DNA from: Flavobacteriales bacterium | GTDB taxonomy: Bacteria; Bacteroidota; Bacteroidia; NS11-12g; UBA955 | DNA: 47,448 nt | Direction of reading: 5' to 3' | NCBI GenBank assembly: GCA_002737625.1 | Contig: NSIB01000003.1 | Span: 1 to 47,448 of the forward strand | Part shown: positions 4,397 to 45,015 of the stretch, piece by piece | Layout: each line of letters starts with the position of its first letter | Position numbering within the stretch: the stretch's first letter is position 1 | Notes under the pieces: generated by a model | Told to the model about the DNA's origin: nothing | Database searches by the model: none | Seen by the model: only the letters and a program-made list of their open reading frames with translations | Translations under genes and position numbers: made by a program

Positions 4397-5459
4397 TCAA
4401 TACTTGAATTATGGCCTCGGGTGATACTACTATGTTATAATCACATTCTCCCGGGGCAAAGGCCATAGAGAACAATAGTTTTTCATGGTTATTCTTTTTA
4501 TCGGCACGGATATAGTTCATCAACGCCGGAATGTTATCCTGGCTAAAATGAATGGGAGTAAATAATTTTTGAATCATCGTTTTTAAATTCTGATGCAATG
4601 ATTCAGTCGCCTCCCGTTGGGGCGATGATTGAATGGCTAATGCCGATTCCATTACAAGTCCCCAAGCAATGGCGTAACCATGGGGAATGGACTTTTCCTG
4701 GTTGAGACTAAAAGATTCCAGGGCATGGCCGATACTATGACCCAGGTTTAACAATTTCCGCTGTCCTTTTTCTTCGAAATCAGCAGTCACAATGCGTGAT
4801 TTGATTTTAATATTCCATTTCAAGATACTCAACCAAACTTGGTGGTCGTGGGTGTTTGGAATCGGTTGCTGCACCTGTGTCCAAGCTTTTCCACCCAATA
4901 AGATTCCGTGCTTGATTACTTCGCCCCACCCGCTTAAAATTTCATTTTCGGGTAGGGTTTTTAACCAATGCGGGGTGATGAAAATGTGAGTGGCTTGAGA
5001 AAAAGTGCCGATGTAATTTTTGTAATGACCCAGATTGATTCCCGTTTTTCCACCAACCGAAGCATCAACCATCGCCAACAGGGTAGTAGGGATGTTCCAA
5101 AATTCAATGCCCCTTAAATAAGTGGATGCACAGAATGCCCCAACATCACAGAGTGCACCACCTCCAATATTTATAATTAGAGAACTGCGTTGCGCGTTAT
5201 TATCTTTTAGCCAAATATAAATCGTTTCGCAGATGGTGAGATTTTTGGCATCTTCGCCATCGGGAATAGATAGGATATGGGATTCGGGTATTCCACCTAC
5301 GCAGTCATCAATGAGCGATAAACAAAGGGAATGGGTTGATTGGCTGCATAAGAAAAAGACATCGGGTTTTGAAGCGATGTTGGCGTCTGAAATGTTATCA
5401 AACCTCGACGATAAAGCTTCAGAAAACTCTGTGGCGATATCCAAGCCACACCAAATCAT
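4371..5459 (-). CDS. aroB: 3-dehydroquinate synthase
   Basis: INIGGGALCDVGAFCASTYLRGIEFWNIPTTLLAMVDASVGGKTGINLG...LLNLGHSIGHALE. Confidence 0.95.
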   Translation of the reverse strand: MIWCGLDIATEFSEALSSRFDNISDANIASKPDVFFLCSQSTHSLCLSLIDDCVGGIPESHILSIPDGEDAKNLTICETIYIWLKDNNAQRSSLIINIGGGALCDVGAFCASTYLRGIEFWNIPTTLLAMVDASVGGKTGINLGHYKNYIGTFSQATHIFITPHWLKTLPENEILSGWGEVIKHGILLGGKAWTQVQQPIPNTHDHQVWLSILKWNIKIKSRIVTADFEEKGQRKLLNLGHSIGHALESFSLNQEKSIPHGYAIAWGLVMESALAIQSSPQREATESLHQNLKTMIQKLFTPIHFSQDNIPALMNYIRADKKNNHEKLLFSMAFAPGECDYNIVVSPEAIIQVLNDYVSHPD

Positions 5460-6367
5460 GATTTGATTTTTTCGTATCGTTGGCTGTTGGTGGGGTCGAT
5501 TTCTGATAGAAATTTCGACATCGCCGTTTTTTCAGGAACAGATGCTCCTTTGTATATTTCTATTAACTCAGGCCATTTGGTAGAGAAGAAGGATTTTTGC
5601 AATAAGCAGTTTTGAAATATCGACTGGGTTTCTTTGAGTTTTTTGATATTCTCGGTAATACTTTTTCTGGCTTGCTCGGGGTTTGCTGCAAATTGGTCCA
5701 TTCCCTTGCGATGATAATTGTAAGTAAGCAAACGAAGGTCTTTAAATCTTGGGTTTGTTAGGTTCTCGGCCAAGTAGAATCTGTTTCTGATACCTTTTCC
5801 GTCACCTTGATTCCATCCCATTTTATTGGTCATTATGGAAACCATGCTCTGCATTTTCGAGAAATAAGGGGATCCGCCCAATTCTGAAAAACTGTCGAAA
5901 TCCATTCCAATCGCTAAGTTGACATAATAAGCGAGTAGGGTGGTGAAGTCGTTCATGTTCATGTTTTCCTGATATTCGAGGTTTTCGAATTCACGATAGC
6001 TAAAATTGATGTCCTCGTCGTTGAACTGAAAAATGGTTGTCTTGTAAGTAGAATTATATGTCGGCCTAACCACCTGAAACTGCATGGAGCCTGAAAAGTC
6101 GTTGTTGTTGATTGCTGTGATATCGAAAAACAGGCTAAACTCAATTTTTTCCTGTGTTGTTATGTTCTCATCGGTCCATTTTCTCGTGTTGATGAACTGC
6201 TGAGCGGCATTTTGCAAAGTTTGTAACACCTGTTTGTCGGTCATTTGAACACGGGGTGCAACAATTTGGATGTTCGCTTTTATTTCTTGCGAAAAGAGGC
6301 TGGGAATAGTCATCGCAAGTGCAATAACAACGAGGAATTTCCTCAAGGGGGTTGCGGTGTAGTTCAT
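5456..6367 (-). CDS. DUF4835 family protein
   Basis: Signal peptide plus DUF4835-like body (IQIVAPRVQMTDKQVLQTLQNAAQQFINTRKWT...); in the conserved position after coaBC; ATGA overlap with the coaBC stop. Confidence 0.8.
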   Translation of the reverse strand: MNYTATPLRKFLVVIALAMTIPSLFSQEIKANIQIVAPRVQMTDKQVLQTLQNAAQQFINTRKWTDENITTQEKIEFSLFFDITAINNNDFSGSMQFQVVRPTYNSTYKTTIFQFNDEDINFSYREFENLEYQENMNMNDFTTLLAYYVNLAIGMDFDSFSELGGSPYFSKMQSMVSIMTNKMGWNQGDGKGIRNRFYLAENLTNPRFKDLRLLTYNYHRKGMDQFAANPEQARKSITENIKKLKETQSIFQNCLLQKSFFSTKWPELIEIYKGASVPEKTAMSKFLSEIDPTNSQRYEKIKS

Positions 6368-7590
6368 CAATGAGTTTGGTTTAACCATTCTGATAAAGAT
6401 TGAAGGAGTTGCTTTGCGATTTCGGTTTTGGAAGCGGTAGGAATTTGCCATTGTTTTCCATCCTTGCAGAAAACGGTTACGGAATTGGTATCCATACCAA
6501 ACCCGGCTTCGGGGTTGCTTTGTAAATTAAGAACGATGCAATCTAGGTTTTTCTTTTGCAATTTGCCTAGCGCATTTTCGTTTTCATTTTCTGTTTCTAG
6601 CGCAAATCCAATGGTGATTTGGTTTTGACGTTTTTGATTCGATAGTTCACTAAGTATATCGGGATTCTTTTTCAATGTAAGCGTAATAGAATCCTCAGAC
6701 TTTTTGATTTTCTGCGATGCGATTTCAACCGGAGCATAATCTGCAACAGCCGCCGCCATGATTAAGATATCGCAATGCGGGAAAAGGTCTAGACATTTAT
6801 TGTACATATCCTTGGCGCTGAGGGCAGGGTATACGTTACAATTATCAGGCAATGCTACACTAACCGAGCTATAAACCAAGTCCACTGTTGCGCCCGATTG
6901 AACCAATGCATCGGCGATCGCAAATCCCATTTTACCAGAACTATGGTTGCCAATAAATCTCACGGGATCGATGGATTCTTGCGTGCCACCAGCGGTGATC
7001 AAGACTCTCTTGCCTGTAAAATAATTGGGCGCGGGCAATAATTGACTTTCCAGGATAGCAAAAATTTGTTCGGGTTCTGCCATTCTGCCTTTTCCGGATA
7101 GGCCAGAAGCCAATTCACCTTCTTCGGGATCGATGATGTTAACGCCTTGATCAACGAGTGTTTTGATATTGGCCTGTGTTGATGCGTGGGTCCACATGTC
7201 CAGGTCCATTGCCGGGGCTACCCAAATGGGACATCTTGCGGATAGGACAACAGACATTAATAAATTATCGCATAAACCGTGAGCCATTTTAGCCAAGGTG
7301 TTTGCACCGGCTGGGGCGATTATAATGGCATCAGCCCACAGAGCTAGATGGACATGATTGTTCCATTCGCCCTGGCTATTTTTGAAAAAATCGGATAAAA
7401 CCGGATTTTCGGATAGAACCGAAAGGGTTTGGGGTGTGACAAAAGATTTTGCCGCCTCGGTTACAACGACCTGTACTTCGGCACCCTCCTTTTTGAGAAG
7501 TCGAACCAATTGTGGGATTTTATAAGCGGCGATGCCTCCTGTAATCCCAACAATGATTTTCTTGTTTTTAAAGTGGTTTTTCCGGAGCAT
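6367..7590 (-). CDS. coaBC: Bifunctional phosphopantothenoylcysteine decarboxylase/phosphopantothenate-cysteine ligase
   Basis: KIIVGITGGIAAYKIPQLVRLLKKEGAEVQVVVTEAA...AITAGGTQESIDPVRFIGNHSSGKMGFAIADA. Confidence 0.95.
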   Translation of the reverse strand: MLRKNHFKNKKIIVGITGGIAAYKIPQLVRLLKKEGAEVQVVVTEAAKSFVTPQTLSVLSENPVLSDFFKNSQGEWNNHVHLALWADAIIIAPAGANTLAKMAHGLCDNLLMSVVLSARCPIWVAPAMDLDMWTHASTQANIKTLVDQGVNIIDPEEGELASGLSGKGRMAEPEQIFAILESQLLPAPNYFTGKRVLITAGGTQESIDPVRFIGNHSSGKMGFAIADALVQSGATVDLVYSSVSVALPDNCNVYPALSAKDMYNKCLDLFPHCDILIMAAAVADYAPVEIASQKIKKSEDSITLTLKKNPDILSELSNQKRQNQITIGFALETENENENALGKLQKKNLDCIVLNLQSNPEAGFGMDTNSVTVFCKDGKQWQIPTASKTEIAKQLLQSLSEWLNQTH

Positions 7591-12205: not shown

Positions 12206-15200
12206 ATGAATACGAGAGAAATTTTGGGTGCCTTTGCCCAAATCCAACCCATGCAAGCACTGTCGGCCGCGGCGGAGCACGCGGCCGAACCCATCTACCT
12301 CCAAGGGCTGGCTGGCTCGGGCTTCGCCCTCGCCACCGCCACCCTCTACGCTTCAATATCCCGTCCCATCATCGCAATCCTCCCCAACAAAGACGAAGCC
12401 CAATATTTTAAATCCGACCTCGAAAATCTCCTCGTCGGTGAATCCATCTATTTCCTCCCAGATTCCTTCCTCAAACCCTATAATGCCGCCCGTGAAAATG
12501 CCATGGGTGTGCAAGAACGTATCGAAACCCTCAATGCCCTTCGTAAAAATAACAAACGCATCTTCGTAACCTATGGCTCCGCCATAGCAGAATATGTGGT
12601 CGATAAAATTGAACTCGAAAAATCTTCCATCGATATCGCTAGAGGCCAAAATCTAGATACCGAATTTTTGATGGAATTTCTGGAAATCAATGGCTTTGAA
12701 CGACGGGATTTTGTGTTCGCTCCCGGTGAATTTAGCATCCGCGGGGGAATTGTCGACCTATTCAGTTTCGCCCACGAATTCCCCTTTCGCATAGAACTCG
12801 ATGGTGATATCATCGAAAGTATCCGTACGTTTGATGTCAACGACCAACTTTCCCTCAAAGAAATTGCCCATTTCTCGCTTCTCCCCAATATTCAAGATCA
12901 ACGCGATCAAGAAACCACAATATCCATTACCGATTACTTTGATCCTAAAACACTGGTTGTTGCGTTCGACCTTAGCTTTCAAATTGAAGAACTTGGCAAA
13001 GCCTGGGAAAAAGCCCTCCAAATCCATCAAGAAGCCGTTGATTTTGGCAGAGAAGTCATCCCCAAACACCCCAAACAAATTTGGAATACGCCCAAAGGCC
13101 TCATGTCGGCCCTACAGCCCTTCACTCAAATACATAATAGCGGCGCTAGACCCACCGGAAAAATTGAAATTATCGAATTCTTGCAACAGCCGCAACCGCT
13201 CTTCAAAAGGAATTTTTCGATGCTCACCGAATGGATGCAATCCAATAAAGCCGAAGGCCTATCAACACTTGTATTTAGTGAGAATAGCCGTCAGATAGAA
13301 CGACTCATTGCAATTTTAGCCGATACCCAGTCCCAAGTCAGCTTTGAACCCGTGTATCAGGGATTGTCGTCCGGATTTGTGGATCGCGACGTAAAAATTG
13401 CTTTTACAACAGAGCATCAGCTGTTTGATAAATATTATCGTCCGCGGGGACGACAAAAATATTCGTCGCAAACATCGCTCACGTTAAGAGAACTAAAACA
13501 CTTAAAACCCGGGGATTTTGTTACTCATATTGATCATGGCATCGGCAGATTTGCGGGCCTGGAGAAAATGGATGTTCACGGTGTAAAGCAGGAAGTGGTG
13601 CGCATCGTATACAAGGACAACGATTTACTCTATGTGTCTGTGAATAGTTTGCACAAAATAAGTAAATACACAGGAAAGGATGGCACACCCCCAAGCATGC
13701 ACAAGTTGGGGAGTCCACAGTGGGATAAACAGAAAAAGGCGACAAAAAAGAAGGTTAAAGATATTGCCCGAGAGTTGATTGCATTGTACGCAAAGCGGAA
13801 ATTACAGCAGGGATTTGCGTTTGGGCCAGACAATTATATGCAGATGGAGTTGGAAGCCAGCTTTTTTTATGAGGATACGCCGGATCAAGCCAAAGCGGTG
13901 GAGGATACAAAACGAGATATGGAATCTCCGCAGCCGATGGACCGATTGGTGTGTGGCGATGTGGGTTTCGGCAAAACAGAGGTCGCCATGCGCGCCGCAT
14001 TTAAAGCCGTTTGTGATAGTAAACAGGTGGCGGTTCTAGTGCCAACAACAATTTTAGCACAACAGCATTTCCGTTCATTCTCAAAGCGATTTGCGGGGTT
14101 TCCTATAACCGTGGATTATATAAACCGATTTAAATCGGCCAAGGAGCAAAAAGACACATTGGAGAAGGTGAAAGCGGGAAAAGTAGATGTGCTCATTGGT
14201 ACGCATCGTATTTTAGGCAAAGACATCGAGTTTAAAGATTTGGGGTTGATGATCATCGACGAAGAACAGAAATTTGGTGTGGCCGCCAAAGAGAAATTGA
14301 AGGAATTTAAAGTAAATGTGGATGCACTCACACTCACGGCTACACCCATACCGCGGACTTTGCACTTTAGCTTGATGGGAGCTCGGGATTTGTCTATTAT
14401 TAACACCCCACCGCCCAACCGTCAGCCTGTGCATACCGAATTACACATGTTCAACAAGGACTTAATTGCCGAGGCGGTTCAGCAAGAAATGGAACGGGGC
14501 GGACAGATCTTCTTTGTTCATAGCCGGGTGAAAGACATCCATGAGATGGCCAGAATTATTGGAGATCTGGTGCCTGGATGCAGGGTTTGTGTGGCTCATG
14601 GTCAGATGGAAGGACATGAATTGGAAGATGCGATGGTTCAGTTTATTGAGGGGGAGTTTGATGTACTCGTGGCAACAACCATTATTGAGAGTGGGTTGGA
14701 TATTCCCAATGCCAATACAATTATTATCAACAATGCGCACATGTTTGGTCTGAGTGATTTGCACCAAATGCGGGGTAGGGTGGGCCGTAGCAATACCAAG
14801 GCTTTCTGTTATTTGCTTTCACCTCCGGTATCTGTTTTGAGTGAGGATGCGCGGAAAAGATTGCGCACGTTGGAAGAATACAGTGAATTGGGCAGTGGGT
14901 TTCAGGTTGCGATGCGGGATTTGGATATCCGAGGGGCTGGAAATTTATTGGGCGGAGAGCAGTCTGGATTCATCAGCGAAATGGGGTTTGACATGTATCA
15001 TAAGATTTTGGATGAAGCGGTGAGGGAGTTAAAAAATGAAGAGTTTGATGCGTTGTTTGATCAACCCGACGATATCAGCAGCCGAGACTGTCAAGTAGAT
15101 ACCCAATTTGAAATGCTCATTCCATCGGAATACGTCACCCAAACCTCGGAACGATTGGCGTTGTACAGTGAATTATCAAATATTAATACGGAATTGGAAT

Positions 15201-15550
15201 TGCAGCGATTTGCAAACAATTTAAAAGATCGATTTGGTAAAATTCCAAATACGGTGGCGGCATTATTGGATACCGTTCGATTAAAATGGGCGGGCAAACA
15301 GCTTGGAATGGAGAAAATTTCACTCGGAAACGGTGGAATGCGTTGCTATTTTCCTGGCGATGCCAATGCGGCAGTATATCACAGCGACAGTTTTGTGGCC
15401 ATTATGGGTTTTGTTGCTAGCAATCCCAATAAGTTTAGCGTTAGACAAACCGATAAAGCGCTGATTGTGAGTGTGAAAGGGTTGGAAACGGTTTTCGAAG
15501 CGCTCCATGTATTGGGGGAATGGGACTTGCATCGGACAACAGAAATATAA
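12206..15550 (+). CDS. mfd: Transcription-repair coupling factor
   Basis: PGDFVTHIDHGIGRFAGL, DRLVCGDVGFGKTEVAMRAAFKAV, IIDEEQKFGV, LTATPIPRTLHFSLMGARDLS, GRVGRSNTKAFCYLL. ATG at 12206 lies downstream of the terminator; the listed 12152 start reads through it. Confidence 0.96.
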   Translation: MNTREILGAFAQIQPMQALSAAAEHAAEPIYLQGLAGSGFALATATLYASISRPIIAILPNKDEAQYFKSDLENLLVGESIYFLPDSFLKPYNAARENAMGVQERIETLNALRKNNKRIFVTYGSAIAEYVVDKIELEKSSIDIARGQNLDTEFLMEFLEINGFERRDFVFAPGEFSIRGGIVDLFSFAHEFPFRIELDGDIIESIRTFDVNDQLSLKEIAHFSLLPNIQDQRDQETTISITDYFDPKTLVVAFDLSFQIEELGKAWEKALQIHQEAVDFGREVIPKHPKQIWNTPKGLMSALQPFTQIHNSGARPTGKIEIIEFLQQPQPLFKRNFSMLTEWMQSNKAEGLSTLVFSENSRQIERLIAILADTQSQVSFEPVYQGLSSGFVDRDVKIAFTTEHQLFDKYYRPRGRQKYSSQTSLTLRELKHLKPGDFVTHIDHGIGRFAGLEKMDVHGVKQEVVRIVYKDNDLLYVSVNSLHKISKYTGKDGTPPSMHKLGSPQWDKQKKATKKKVKDIARELIALYAKRKLQQGFAFGPDNYMQMELEASFFYEDTPDQAKAVEDTKRDMESPQPMDRLVCGDVGFGKTEVAMRAAFKAVCDSKQVAVLVPTTILAQQHFRSFSKRFAGFPITVDYINRFKSAKEQKDTLEKVKAGKVDVLIGTHRILGKDIEFKDLGLMIIDEEQKFGVAAKEKLKEFKVNVDALTLTATPIPRTLHFSLMGARDLSIINTPPPNRQPVHTELHMFNKDLIAEAVQQEMERGGQIFFVHSRVKDIHEMARIIGDLVPGCRVCVAHGQMEGHELEDAMVQFIEGEFDVLVATTIIESGLDIPNANTIIINNAHMFGLSDLHQMRGRVGRSNTKAFCYLLSPPVSVLSEDARKRLRTLEEYSELGSGFQVAMRDLDIRGAGNLLGGEQSGFISEMGFDMYHKILDEAVRELKNEEFDALFDQPDDISSRDCQVDTQFEMLIPSEYVTQTSERLALYSELSNINTELELQRFANNLKDRFGKIPNTVAALLDTVRLKWAGKQLGMEKISLGNGGMRCYFPGDANAAVYHSDSFVAIMGFVASNPNKFSVRQTDKALIVSVKGLETVFEALHVLGEWDLHRTTEI
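12263..12288 (+). repeat. GC-rich inverted repeat at the 5' end of the mfd CDS
   Basis: TCGGCCGCG-gcggagca-CGCGGCCGA perfect 9-bp arms. Confidence 0.8.
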
Positions 15551-24186: not shown

Positions 24187-25305
24187 ATGCGGAAAGTAAA
24201 TTCTTTTTTTGAAGTAAATTTAGTCCTGGGATTGGGTTTCCTATTGATTTTGGCTGGTTGCGGTGCAATGGGCTCCAAGAGACATGGGTGCAAGGTGGAT
24301 ACGCATCTTTTAGATTCGCTTCTTGCATCGGGTTCCAATCAACCACCGGTGGCTCCTCTTCGGGTGTCGTTTTATAATTTGGAGAATTTATTTGATACGG
24401 TAGATGGTCCAAACGACGATACGGAGTTTTTGCCGAATTCGGCGAATGCATGGAACGGTGAGAGGTATAAGAGTAAGTTGCGGAATATGGCGCAGGTTAT
24501 TGATAGTATAGCACCTGACATTTTGGGATTGGTAGAATTAGAGAATGCTTTTGTTTTGGAGGATTTGCGTGCCAACAGTGTGGTGATGAAGGGGAAGTTT
24601 GAGATTGCGCATCGGGAATCTCCGGATTTAAGGGGTATTGATGTTGCGCTGATGTATAATGCGGAGTTATTTAGAATTTCTGGGATATGTATGATTCCAA
24701 TTACTTTGCCTGATGGTTATGCCACGCGGAGTATTATGCGGGTTCATTTGGTTGAGAAGGGCACGGGTGATTCTTTGGCGGTATTTATTAACCATTGGCC
24801 AAGTCGTCGCGGCGGTGCGGCCAGTGCGGCAAGCCGCATGGCCGCCGCCGCCGCTCTCTTGCAAAACATTCAATCTTTACCCAATCTACCCAATAATTAT
24901 ATCCTTTTGGGTGATTTTAACGATGATCCAGAAGATAAATCAATCACCGAGGGTCTCAATGCTGGTGATTCATATCACCCCATTGTCAATTTGGCTTTTC
25001 TTGCGCGCGCGAAAGACACTACCGTGGGCACCATTGCTTGGTATGATGGCTGGAATATGTTTGATCAAATCATGTTGAGTAGGGCCCTGTATTTTGCCAA
25101 CTTGCACAACAATGAAACACTGGCCAACAAACAAATTGCCGTTGCTGAGCCTCGTATCAACGTATATAAACGCCCTTGGATGCTTCAGCATGGAGGGAAA
25201 TACGATGGTTGGCCCTTGCGAACCTTTGCCGGTAAAAAATACATGAATGGGTATTCAGATCACTTGCCCGTCTATACAGACCTGGTCCTCGTGCATCGTC
25301 ATTAA
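24187..25305 (+). CDS. Endonuclease/exonuclease/phosphatase (EEP) family lipoprotein
   Basis: Lipobox LILAGCGAM; EEP motifs FYNLENLFDTVD, LGLVELEN, NHWPSRRGG, ILLGDFNDDPED, GYSDHLPVYTDLVL. Confidence 0.88.
   Translation: MRKVNSFFEVNLVLGLGFLLILAGCGAMGSKRHGCKVDTHLLDSLLASGSNQPPVAPLRVSFYNLENLFDTVDGPNDDTEFLPNSANAWNGERYKSKLRNMAQVIDSIAPDILGLVELENAFVLEDLRANSVVMKGKFEIAHRESPDLRGIDVALMYNAELFRISGICMIPITLPDGYATRSIMRVHLVEKGTGDSLAVFINHWPSRRGGAASAASRMAAAAALLQNIQSLPNLPNNYILLGDFNDDPEDKSITEGLNAGDSYHPIVNLAFLARAKDTTVGTIAWYDGWNMFDQIMLSRALYFANLHNNETLANKQIAVAEPRINVYKRPWMLQHGGKYDGWPLRTFAGKKYMNGYSDHLPVYTDLVLVHRH
24809..24854 (+). repeat. GC-rich inverted repeat inside the EEP-family gene
   Basis: GCGGCGG.GCGGCCA.TGCGGC-aa-GCCGCA.TGGCCGC..CCGCCGC: 20 bp paired in 46 nt with one bulge and one small internal loop. 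Confidence 0.88.
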
Positions 25306-42552: not shown

Positions 42553-45015
42553 GTGACGGAGATTCAGACCCTTTTTGCGCATGTGTTGGTGCCAGTGCCG
42601 GTGCCAAAGGCCTATACGTATCGGGTTCCTCACGATTGGAACGACTGGATTCATCAGGGTTTGAGGGTTGCGGTGCAATTTGGACCAAAGAAGATATATG
42701 CAGGAATTATTTTGGAGCTGAGTGATTCTCCACCGGAGGGTTATCAAGCTTCTTATATCTTGGATGTGTTGGACGATGCACCCATTGTGAATCACAAGCA
42801 ATTGCAGTTTTGGCGTTGGGTGGCCAAATATTATATGTGTTATTTGGGGGAGGTGATGGCTACTGCGTTGCCAGCGGGGTATCGACTTCAGAGTGAGACG
42901 AAGATTGTTTTGCATCCCGATGCAGATTTGGAAGCGATAAGTAGGACTGATGTTGAAGATTTGGAGTGGCAGATTTTGGAGTTGTTAGGGAAGAAGGATG
43001 GGATGTCGTTGGACGATATACATCAAAAGCTGGCGGTTAAGAATGTGCTGAAGCATGTTAAGTCGTTGTATTTAAGGGGTTTGGTGGTAATGGAGGAGGA
43101 GTTGAAGGAGAATTATCGACCTAAATATGAGGAGTTTTTAGAGTTGTGCAGTATTTGGGATGATTCGGAATTGGCAAATTCGAGTTTGAACGCGTTGGAG
43201 CGACGTGCACCGAAGCAGTATGAGGCGATTATGCATATTTTGGGGACGGGAAAGAGGGAGTTGACGGTGGAATCAATTGTGAAGGGATTTGAGATGGACA
43301 GGACGGTGCTGAAGCAGTTAGAGAAGAAGTCGTTGATAATGATTGTGAAGCGCCGCCGCGATCACCTTCAGGTGATCCGCGGCGGCGCGCAAGAATACCA
43401 ACTCACCGAATCTCAGTCGCGGGCCCTTGGAATCATTCGCGCTGGATTTGAAGAAAAACAGCCGGCCTTGCTTTACGGGGTTACGGGATCGGGTAAAACC
43501 CATGTGTATATGGAGTTGGTGAAGGAGACGTTGGCGGCGGGGAAACAGGTGCTTTATTTGTTGCCAGAGGTTGCACTAACGGAGCATATGGTGGCTCGGA
43601 TGGGTGCGTTTTTGCCGGTGGAAATTGGCGTTTGGCATCACTTTTATAGTTCTCACGAGAGGACGGAATTGTACGATCGGATATTGAAGGATCAAATCCA
43701 GTTTGTGGTGGGTACTAAAGGGGCGGTGTTTGCTCCTTTTTCTAATTTGGGGTTGATTGTGGTGGATGAGGAGCATGAATCAACGTATAAGCAGTTTGAT
43801 AAAAAGCCATTTTATCACGGTCGGGATTCGGCGTTTCAGTTGGCCAAGTATCATGGGGCCAATGTTTTGTTGGGTTCGGCTACGCCGAGTTATGAAATGC
43901 AGTTTGCTGTGCAGCAGCATCGTATGGTAATTGCCGAAATAACGGAGAAGTACGATGGCGGAAAACCGGCTGAGTTGATGTATTTGAATATCGGTGAGTT
44001 GAAGAAAACGGGTCAGATGAATTCGTTGTTTTCCGAGCCGGTGAGGATGGCCATTCAGAAGGCGATGGATGTGAAGCAGAAGGTGGTGGTGTATCACAAT
44101 CGAAAGGGGTATGTGCCTTATATTGAGTGTGGGGATTGTGGGTTGACAACGCAGTGCAAGCATTGTGATATTTCGATGACCTACTATAAGAGTTCAGACA
44201 ATCAGCGATGCAGTTATTGTGGGTTTCAGCAGCCGGTACCATCGAAATGTGTGGCCTGTGGTTCTCAGGATTTGAAGTTGAAGGGGACGGGCACGGAGAA
44301 GTTGGCGGAGGAATTGGGGCAGCTGTTTCCCAAGGCTAGGGTGGCGCGGTTTGACCAGCAGAGCATGCGGAAGCGGGATGATTTTCAGAATATTTTGACG
44401 GCGTTTGAGCGGGGTGATATTGATATTTTGGTGGGGACGCAGTTGTTATCGAAGGGGATTGATATAGAGAATATCGGCTTGGTTGTGGTGCCGGATGCGG
44501 ATATGTTGTTGCACATTCCTGATTTTAGGAGTCATGAACGGGCATTTCAGCAACTGCAACAATTGAGTGGTAGGATAGGGCGCCGCGCGGAGCGCGGCGT
44601 GATGATGTTACAGACATATCAACCGGAACATGAAGTATTGAAGTCCCTGAAAGCCGATGATTACCAAGGGTTGATGCAAGTGGAAATGGAGCAGCGCGAA
44701 GCCTTCGGCTATCCTCCTTACACAAAGTTGATTAAGGTGGATGTGAAGCACATAGATGCACAAGTGGCGACCGAGGCCAGCCGTTGGCTGGCCGACCAAT
44801 TGCGAAAGCAATTGGGGAACCTGGTGCTGGGGCCCCAGGTTCCTTCGGTCGCCCGCATAAAAAATCGATTCATCCAGCAAATTGTCATCAAGGTCCCCCG
44901 AGAAACCGCCCAACTGAACGCCGCAAAATTCCTATTGCAACAAGTTCGTGAAGCGGCCTTGGCTCACAACAGTTGGCGTTCGGTTCGCATCGATATTATC
45001 ATCGATCCCAATTAA
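42553..45015 (+). CDS. priA: Primosomal protein N' (replication restart helicase PriA), GTG start
   Basis: LLYGVTGSGKTHVYMELV, VDEEHESTYKQ, LLGSATPSYE, zinc-binding CGDCGLTTQCKHCDISMTYY...CSYCGFQQPVPSKCVACGS, QLSGRIGRRAERG. Confidence 0.96.
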   Translation: MTEIQTLFAHVLVPVPVPKAYTYRVPHDWNDWIHQGLRVAVQFGPKKIYAGIILELSDSPPEGYQASYILDVLDDAPIVNHKQLQFWRWVAKYYMCYLGEVMATALPAGYRLQSETKIVLHPDADLEAISRTDVEDLEWQILELLGKKDGMSLDDIHQKLAVKNVLKHVKSLYLRGLVVMEEELKENYRPKYEEFLELCSIWDDSELANSSLNALERRAPKQYEAIMHILGTGKRELTVESIVKGFEMDRTVLKQLEKKSLIMIVKRRRDHLQVIRGGAQEYQLTESQSRALGIIRAGFEEKQPALLYGVTGSGKTHVYMELVKETLAAGKQVLYLLPEVALTEHMVARMGAFLPVEIGVWHHFYSSHERTELYDRILKDQIQFVVGTKGAVFAPFSNLGLIVVDEEHESTYKQFDKKPFYHGRDSAFQLAKYHGANVLLGSATPSYEMQFAVQQHRMVIAEITEKYDGGKPAELMYLNIGELKKTGQMNSLFSEPVRMAIQKAMDVKQKVVVYHNRKGYVPYIECGDCGLTTQCKHCDISMTYYKSSDNQRCSYCGFQQPVPSKCVACGSQDLKLKGTGTEKLAEELGQLFPKARVARFDQQSMRKRDDFQNILTAFERGDIDILVGTQLLSKGIDIENIGLVVVPDADMLLHIPDFRSHERAFQQLQQLSGRIGRRAERGVMMLQTYQPEHEVLKSLKADDYQGLMQVEMEQREAFGYPPYTKLIKVDVKHIDAQVATEASRWLADQLRKQLGNLVLGPQVPSVARIKNRFIQQIVIKVPRETAQLNAAKFLLQQVREAALAHNSWRSVRIDIIIDPN
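43350..43388 (+). repeat. Long GC-rich inverted repeat inside priA
   Basis: GCGCCGCCGCGATCACC-ttca-GGTGATCCGCGGCGGCGC: 17 bp paired with one bulged base. Confidence 0.9.
44581..44599 (+). repeat. GC-only inverted repeat inside priA
   Basis: CGCCGCGC-gga-GCGCGGCG: perfect 8-bp stem. Confidence 0.85.
44766..44853 (+). repeat. Nested inverted repeats forming a potential four-way junction inside priA
   Basis: Outer stem GGCGACCGA/TCGGTCGCC (9 bp) encloses GGCCAGCC-gtt-GGCTGGCC, CCAATTGC-gaaa-GCAATTGG and GGAACCTGG-(10 nt)-CCAGGTTCC. Confidence 0.88.

What the first reader, a model, noticed from the sequence alone, without database searches (positions are those of the whole stretch)
24809..24854. 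20-bp inverted repeat in the EEP-family gene marks a sharp strand-composition switch
GCGGCGG-t-GCGGCCA-g-TGCGGC-aa-GCCGCA-TGGCCGC-cg-CCGCCGC spans the RRGGAASAASRMAAAAA codons. The ~600 nt before it are C-poor and G/T-rich with leucine almost entirely TTG/TTA (for example gggattggtagaattagagaatgcttttgttttggaggatttgcgt). The sequence right after is C/A-rich (ctcttgcaaaacattcaatctttacccaatctacccaataattatatcc). The composition changes at the palindrome, not gradually.
Basis: seen in the sequence. Interest (0 to 1): 0.7.

Follow-up and report, generated by a model that had tools for sequence, protein, structure and literature searches.

The report
Gene hairpins that flip strand composition
In one group of freshwater Flavobacteriales, genes carry conserved DNA palindromes at which the base composition of the two strands abruptly swaps, in this gene and at dozens of similar sites across the genome, probably because each palindrome is a long-lived site of strand-biased mutation.

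Summary
A 20-bp imperfect palindrome lies at 24809-24854 in an endonuclease/exonuclease/phosphatase gene (24187-25305). The third-position change-point is at 24790 (likelihood gain 19; best of 1000 shuffles 11.7). Palindrome and switch occur together in all eight intact genus orthologs that carry it; two congeners and 19 more distant orthologs lack both.

It is not a one-off. In 1.1 Mb of this genome, internal coding hairpins are far above a synonymous-codon shuffle (17 vs 1 at score >=30), and third-position GC skew flips from about +0.30 to -0.24 at them. Many sharp G-to-C switches carry a strong hairpin; no sharp C-to-G switch does. In four more genes, orthologs with the hairpin show the switch; those without show little or none. 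E. coli shows nothing similar.

Recombinant gene halves, transcription direction and terminators do not explain it. Best guess (0.4): hairpins form in DNA, are broken or processed, and strand-biased repair mutates the flanks, while template switching keeps the arms matched. A clade-restricted Mre11-Rad50 pair fits this but is a single clade correlation. Against it: equally strong intergenic hairpins show little effect. The phenomenon is well supported; the mechanism is open.

The parts
24187..25305 (+). EEP-family gene (Exo_endo_phos_3, PF19580), 372 aa, host of the palindrome
   Evidence: ORF; Pfam E 9e-78, residues 60-365
24809..24854 (.). 46-nt imperfect palindrome, 20 pairs, encoding part of RRGGAASAASRMAAAAA; 29-nt core GCGGCCAGTGCGGCAAGCCGCATGGCCGC single copy in the held genome
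24350..24808 (+). keto-rich (G/T), C-poor stretch before the palindrome (3rd positions C.06 G.39)
24855..25305 (+). C-richer, G-poorer stretch after the palindrome (3rd positions C.27 G.19)
12209..15550 (+). mfd (transcription-repair coupling factor), second case in the window
   Evidence: Pfam TRCF, CarD_TRCF_RID, UvrB_inter; change-point gain 38
12263..12288 (.). mfd hairpin TCGGCCGCG-gcggagca-CGCGGCCGA
   Evidence: conserved in the hairpin clade, loop inverted in L165, absent with the switch in L167
12289..13363 (+). C-rich block after the mfd hairpin (first 100 codons C.54 G.05), ending near 13363
42553..45015 (+). priA, third case in the window
   Evidence: Pfam PriA_3primeBD, PriA_C; change-point gain 27
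44581..44599 (.). priA hairpin CGCCGCGC-gga-GCGCGGCG at the helicase motif GRIGRRAERG
   Evidence: C.07>.25, G.55>.37
44775..44793 (.). second priA hairpin GGCCAGCC-gtt-GGCTGGCC
   Evidence: read
44816..44843 (.). third priA hairpin GGAACCTGGtgctGGGGCCCCAGGTTCC
   Evidence: C.18>.39, G.38>.16

Best explanation
The palindrome is one of several dozen long-lived hairpin-forming sites inside genes of this clade. Proposed steps. (1) Inferred: the inverted repeat folds into a DNA hairpin or cruciform during replication or transcription. (2) Inferred: the hairpin is cut or otherwise processed, possibly by the clade's Mre11-Rad50 (SbcCD-like) pair, and the break is resected 5' to 3', leaving the strand that runs 3' into the break single-stranded on each side. 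(3) Shown as a pattern, cause inferred: that strand gains G (A to G, C to G), so each strand becomes G/T-rich towards the hairpin and C/A-rich beyond it, over about 1 kb. (4) Pattern shown, mechanism inferred: template switching across the hairpin rematches the arms and sometimes inverts the loop, so the palindrome persists while its sequence drifts.
For: Flip at internal coding hairpins: mean skew change -0.20 at score 24-26 and -0.30 to -0.37 at score >=27, background 0.000 sd 0.116. At |z| 3.5-5, 40-60% of G-to-C switches carry a strong hairpin, and 4 of 4 above |z| 6; no C-to-G switch above |z| 3.5 does. Folded profile 0.28-0.33 near the hairpin, 0.10 at 1-1.5 kb, 0.02 at 2-3 kb, with GC3 falling .51 to .44 over the same scale. 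Nearly symmetric about the inferred fork direction (+0.15/-0.13), and codon positions 1 and 2 also shift, less. Orthologs: hairpin and switch go together in EEP, waaA, mfd, dnaE2 and spoU. Polarised changes: A>G 2.8x (p 1e-8) and C>G 2.1x (p .045) commoner on the strand running into the hairpin; A>G and C>G are among the strand-asymmetric types around human meiotic breaks, where ssDNA lies left of the break on the forward strand and right on the reverse (PMC7615360). Arm covariation in waaA: 13 double-sided cells, 0/500 shuffles; inverted loops in waaA and mfd. SbcCD cuts hairpins of palindromes above 20-36 bp in vitro (PMC4245961). An Mre11-Rad50 pair occurs in 11 of 13 other-than-hairpin-free genus genomes (all but G000 and G006), in neither hairpin-free congener, and its Mre11 gene in none of 43 more distant relatives.
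Against: Intergenic hairpins of equal strength (mean stem 15 bp) have weak flanking skew (about 0.1 within 150 nt, then ~0), which a pure DNA-hairpin model does not predict. The effect is weaker beyond gene ends, near zero beyond the 3' end, while in long genes it persists past 1.3 kb inside the gene. C>T, the usual ssDNA change, is not asymmetric (ratio 0.75). The polarised changes do not balance the present composition, though parsimony is biased against rare-to-common changes. Mre11-Rad50 is missing from G006 (92% complete) and not found in the window's own genome (74% complete), and its distribution is a single clade event. E. coli, which has SbcCD, shows no such pattern in 0.26 Mb of coding sequence. 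Conservation of the EEP and mfd hairpins is not explained by damage alone.
Confidence: 0.4

Rival explanations
1. Transcript-level effect: the hairpin acts in the mRNA or during transcription (pausing, R-loops, Rho-type C>G loading sites, mRNA folding), and composition is shaped by selection or transcription-linked mutation within the transcript.
For: Only coding hairpins show the flip strongly. The effect is weaker outside the gene, continues into codirectional upstream genes and is weak in opposite-strand neighbours of hairpins near gene ends. The two flanks have complementary composition.
Against: Transcription direction itself leaves almost no GC skew: convergent gene ends are about 0.01-0.02 beyond the first 75 nt. 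Upstream and downstream effects are equal and opposite, hence symmetric for both strands. The flanks do not fold to each other beyond composition in most genes. Some opposite-strand neighbours do carry the effect (0.09).
Confidence: 0.2
2. Selected functional element: the hairpin and its polar flanks are kept by selection, for example as polar recognition sequence for a DNA translocase or recombination enzyme (a Chi- or KOPS-like role).
For: EEP 24-nt core unchanged, synonymous sites included, in six of eight species. mfd hairpin kept throughout the clade. A keto-rich strand pointing into the site is the polarity that Chi has towards a break (own knowledge).
Against: No short motif stands out convincingly beyond composition in the flanks. 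The waaA and dnaE2 hairpins drift in sequence.
Confidence: 0.2
3. Composition first: G-rich codons followed by C-rich codons make complementary sequence by chance, so palindromes are a by-product of a switch that has another cause.
For: A G-rich to C-rich step does favour complementary arms such as GCGGCGG...CCGCCGC.
Against: Many hairpins are perfect 13-22 bp stems with mixed bases. Synonymous-codon shuffles rarely make them (17 vs 1). Arms covary. spoU has the switch only where the hairpin is present.
Confidence: 0.07
4. Gene chimera: homologous recombination joined a 5' half and a 3' half of different composition.
For: The switch is sharp and inside the gene.
Against: Shared by species 60-77% identical in protein, repeated at dozens of hairpins with one polarity, fading with distance.
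Confidence: 0.03

Closest known systems
Strand-asymmetric mutation around meiotic double-strand-break hotspots in humans (PMC7615360)
   Same: Asymmetry switches at the centre, spans about 1-2 kb, involves C and A on the left forward strand, with A>G and C>G among the asymmetric types.
   Different: Here the centre is a palindrome inside bacterial genes, no break has been seen, the asymmetry is written into base composition, and C>T is not asymmetric.
Coding palindromes of nematomorph mitochondrial genes (PMC6649704)
   Same: Perfect inverted repeats within functional protein-coding genes, closely spaced arms, template switching discussed for their upkeep.
   Different: Those repeats are longer (up to 142-bp arms), mitochondrial, and the word skew does not occur in that paper's main text.
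Template-switch mutations that create and maintain hairpins (PMC8794818)
   Same: Perfect stems and multi-base compensatory changes.
   Different: Does not by itself predict a kilobase-scale composition flip.
SbcCD/Mre11-Rad50 cleavage of chromosomal palindromes in E. coli (PMC4245961)
   Same: Palindrome hairpins as break sites; the in vitro size limit matches the hairpins here.
   Different: E. coli work used 246-480 bp palindromes; natural short ones are thought to escape there.
Intrinsic transcription terminators
   Same: GC-rich hairpins.
   Different: No T-run (1 of 45 coding hairpins against 15 of 51 intergenic), inside coding sequence.

Membership tests
EEP nuclease/phosphatase family (host gene) | Exo_endo_phos_3 domain over most of the protein | tested here: met
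   PF19580 E 9e-78, residues 60-365, gathering score exceeded
Intrinsic terminator | hairpin followed by a T-run | tested here: not met
   24855 onwards is TCTCTTGCAA-like, no T-run; 1 of 45 coding hairpins has >=6 T in 9 nt
Template-switch-maintained hairpin | arms change together between species | tested here: met
   waaA: 95.8% cells paired, 6 of 12 pairs changed on both sides, covariation 0.40 vs 0.10, 0/500 shuffles; the EEP hairpin itself is too conserved to test
Template-switch-maintained hairpin | loop inversion between arms | tested here: met
   waaA GAA/TTC (L147), mfd GCGGAGCA/TGCTCTGC (L165)
Break-hotspot mutation signature | complementary asymmetry on the two sides, 1-2 kb range | tested here: met
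Break-hotspot mutation signature | C and A preferentially mutated on the 3'-ended strand | tested here: inconclusive
   A>G and C>G enriched, C>T not, A>C and C>A depleted
Break-hotspot mutation signature | physical double-strand breaks at the centre | not testable with these tools
   no strain or reads
Break-hotspot mutation signature | acts on any hairpin in DNA | tested here: not met
   intergenic hairpins show little
Replication terminus / skew maximum | single chromosomal switch between replichores | tested here: not met
   dozens of local switches within contigs of coherent overall skew
Multi-copy palindromic repeat (REP/RPE type) | shared sequence among copies | tested here: not met
   EEP core single copy with up to 3 mismatches; hairpin sequences differ
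SbcCD (Mre11-Rad50) pair | adjacent calcineurin-type nuclease and SMC-type ATPase | tested here: inconclusive
   architecture met (PF00149; SMC_N/AAA_23) but best NCBIfam hits sbcd 50 bits and Rad50 76 bits are below cut-offs; activity untested

The most novel reading that the evidence does not exclude
These hairpins are a dedicated, clade-specific set of recombination or break hotspots served by the acquired Mre11-Rad50 pair: a bacterial counterpart of meiotic hotspots with fixed, self-repairing DNA marks inside genes.
Probability: 0.12. Interest if true: 0.92.

Novelty: new variant of a known kind. Interest (0 to 1): 0.72.

Why it matters
A sequence feature of a few dozen bases seems to set the mutational direction of about a kilobase of surrounding coding DNA, amino-acid choice included, and to be inherited long enough to see across species. 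That would make intragenic palindromes a measurable source of local codon and protein bias, give a natural readout of hairpin processing in bacterial chromosomes, and link it to a specific candidate nuclease. It also warns that within-gene composition breaks are not proof of recombination.

Tried and rejected
Antisense read-through from convergent pyrG, stopping at the palindrome: rejected because convergent gene ends show no GC skew. Recombinant halves: rejected by conservation and repetition; half-gene trees not built. Long-range pairing of the two halves of the mRNA: within-half synonymous shuffles fold about as well in most genes. Mobile or repeated palindrome: single copy. Chi/KOPS-like motif: no convincing k-mer. 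Strictly gene-bounded effect: crosses gene ends in part. A second DnaE-type polymerase as cause: missing from the two hairpin-free congeners but present in many relatives outside the genus, so not specific; those relatives could not be tested for hairpins genome-wide.

Full report
WHAT WAS CHECKED. The palindrome at 24809-24854 is present as described. It folds far better than dinucleotide shuffles. The EEP gene runs 24187-25305 and matches Exo_endo_phos_3. The palindrome encodes the stretch after the NHWPSR motif. In third positions the gene changes from G/T-rich and C-poor to C-richer and G-poorer. The likelihood change-point is at 24790 with or without the palindrome codons, and none of 1000 shuffles comes close. 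Of 37 ORFs tested in the window, two more switch with similar strength, mfd and priA. Both hold GC-rich hairpins where they turn from G-rich to C-rich.

RELATIVES. Matches were found in 41 of 58 genomes (the window's own included), and loci were taken for the best. Eight intact orthologs in the genus (L001-L008) keep the palindrome. Its 24-nt core GCGGCCAGTGCGGCAAGCCGCATG is identical, synonymous sites included, in six of them; L004 and L007 each differ by one base. In these eight a 66-nt stretch folds at -37 to -45 kcal/mol; in L009, L010 and 19 more distant orthologs the same stretch folds at -7 to -21. The change-points of the eight fall within about 20 codons of the palindrome. L009 and L010, congeners without it, have no change-point there, nor do the 19 others. 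L011 has an assembly gap (NN) inside the palindrome. The public records come from separate projects, so the feature is not an artefact of one assembly.

GENOME-WIDE. I fetched 1.1 Mb of the 1.46 Mb held, called ORFs mechanically, and searched for hairpins with 3-10 nt loops. Counting only hairpins at least 90 nt inside a gene, there are 44, 23 and 17 at scores of 24, 27 and 30 or more, against 14, 2 and 1 after shuffling synonymous codons within genes. At coding hairpins the third-position GC skew goes from about +0.30 to -0.24, against a background change of 0.000 with sd 0.116. Turning the question round, 40-60% of the sharp G-to-C switches at |z| 3.5-5 and all four above |z| 6 have an unusually strong hairpin. 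None of the three between 5 and 6 does, but one of those is the EEP gene itself, whose bulged stem the gap-free finder misses. None of the C-to-G switches above |z| 3.5 has one. The same tendency is present in G013 and weak or absent in G008. E. coli K-12 (0.26 Mb of CDS) shows no clear enrichment and no flip.

SHAPE. Folding both sides together, the skew is 0.28-0.33 beside strong coding hairpins, 0.17 at 0.75-1 kb, 0.10 at 1-1.5 kb and 0.02 at 2-3 kb, and GC3 declines over the same distance. The effect is equal and opposite upstream and downstream of the gene direction and roughly symmetric about the inferred fork direction. Codon positions 1 and 2 shift in the same sense by about a third or less, which favours mutation over pure codon selection. 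Gene-end controls show that transcription direction leaves almost no GC skew. Two facts complicate a pure distance law. The effect drops at gene boundaries, especially 3' ends, and persists inside long genes. Intergenic hairpins of equal strength show it only weakly.

COVARIATION BETWEEN SPECIES. In waaA, mfd, dnaE2 and spoU every ortholog with a hairpin has a strong flip (-0.28 to -0.73). Orthologs without one have values from -0.11 to +0.12, except mfd L168 at -0.29 on only 21 upstream codons. spoU is the cleanest contrast: six genomes with the hairpin flip, nine without do not. A wider, rougher comparison gives -0.24 (hairpin kept, n 13) against -0.06 (lost, n 15), p = 0.03; the 'lost' group includes the bulged EEP hairpin of G013 that the finder misses, and one G008 ortholog has a flip without a hairpin. 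The waaA arms change together, and loops are found inverted, as template switching would produce.

SUBSTITUTIONS. From five genes in six close genomes, polarised by parsimony, A to G is 2.8 times and C to G 2.1 times as frequent on the strand running into the hairpin as on the other; A to C and C to A are rarer; C to T shows no bias. This is gain of G, not simple cytosine deamination. Published work on human meiotic breaks reports strand-asymmetric A>G and C>G changes with the same geometry (PMC7615360). Parsimony counts common-to-rare changes too often, which works against the A to G result but also prevents a test of equilibrium.

CANDIDATE ENZYME. A two-gene Mre11-like and Rad50-like unit (L206:6838-7991 and 4400-6837, minus strand) is found in 11 of the 13 genus genomes other than G008 and G012, in neither of those two, and its Mre11 gene in none of 43 relatives outside the genus. 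It is missing from G006 and from the incomplete window genome. The family scores are below curated cut-offs. One clade-level coincidence is weak evidence, and I treat it as a lead.

CONCLUSION. The phenomenon is well supported; the mechanism is not settled. I favour hairpin-provoked processing with strand-biased repair, plus template switching that preserves the arms, at 0.4. A transcript-level cause and direct selection on a functional element are each at about 0.2. In the open-access library I found no report of intragenic hairpins that mark local skew reversals (six searches; subscription papers are mostly not covered).

Noticed in passing
L206:4400-7991: Clade-restricted Rad50-like and Mre11-like gene pair, the Mre11 gene absent from 43 relatives outside the genus; weak similarity also to Gabija/LmuB-type defence ATPases, so a defence role is possible.
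   Followed up: partly
L065:633-3659: Second DnaE-type polymerase, closest models include error-prone DNA polymerase, with three tandem hairpins at codons 203-246; missing from G008 and G012 but common in other relatives.
   Followed up: partly
L063:5731-6759: Most extreme switch: third positions C.04/G.58 before and C.43/G.12 after two tandem hairpins, in a gene with no Pfam match.
   Followed up: partly
L083:6092-6246: Two very long perfect inverted repeats (49 and 48 nt) in the 5' part of a DUF4159 gene ORF; the first may lie before the true start.
   Followed up: no
L047, L062, L065, L074 and window mfd/priA: Hairpin genes include several DNA-handling genes (dprA, dnaG, a second dnaE, comEC, mfd, priA); not tested against chance.
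   Followed up: no
L011:1440-1520: Assembly gap (NN) inside the EEP palindrome of G014, a likely assembler failure at the palindrome.
   Followed up: no
L132: Public record titled Chryseobacterium gleum (CAMBTR010000057.1) groups by this gene with the uncultured freshwater genus; the label looks wrong.
   Followed up: no
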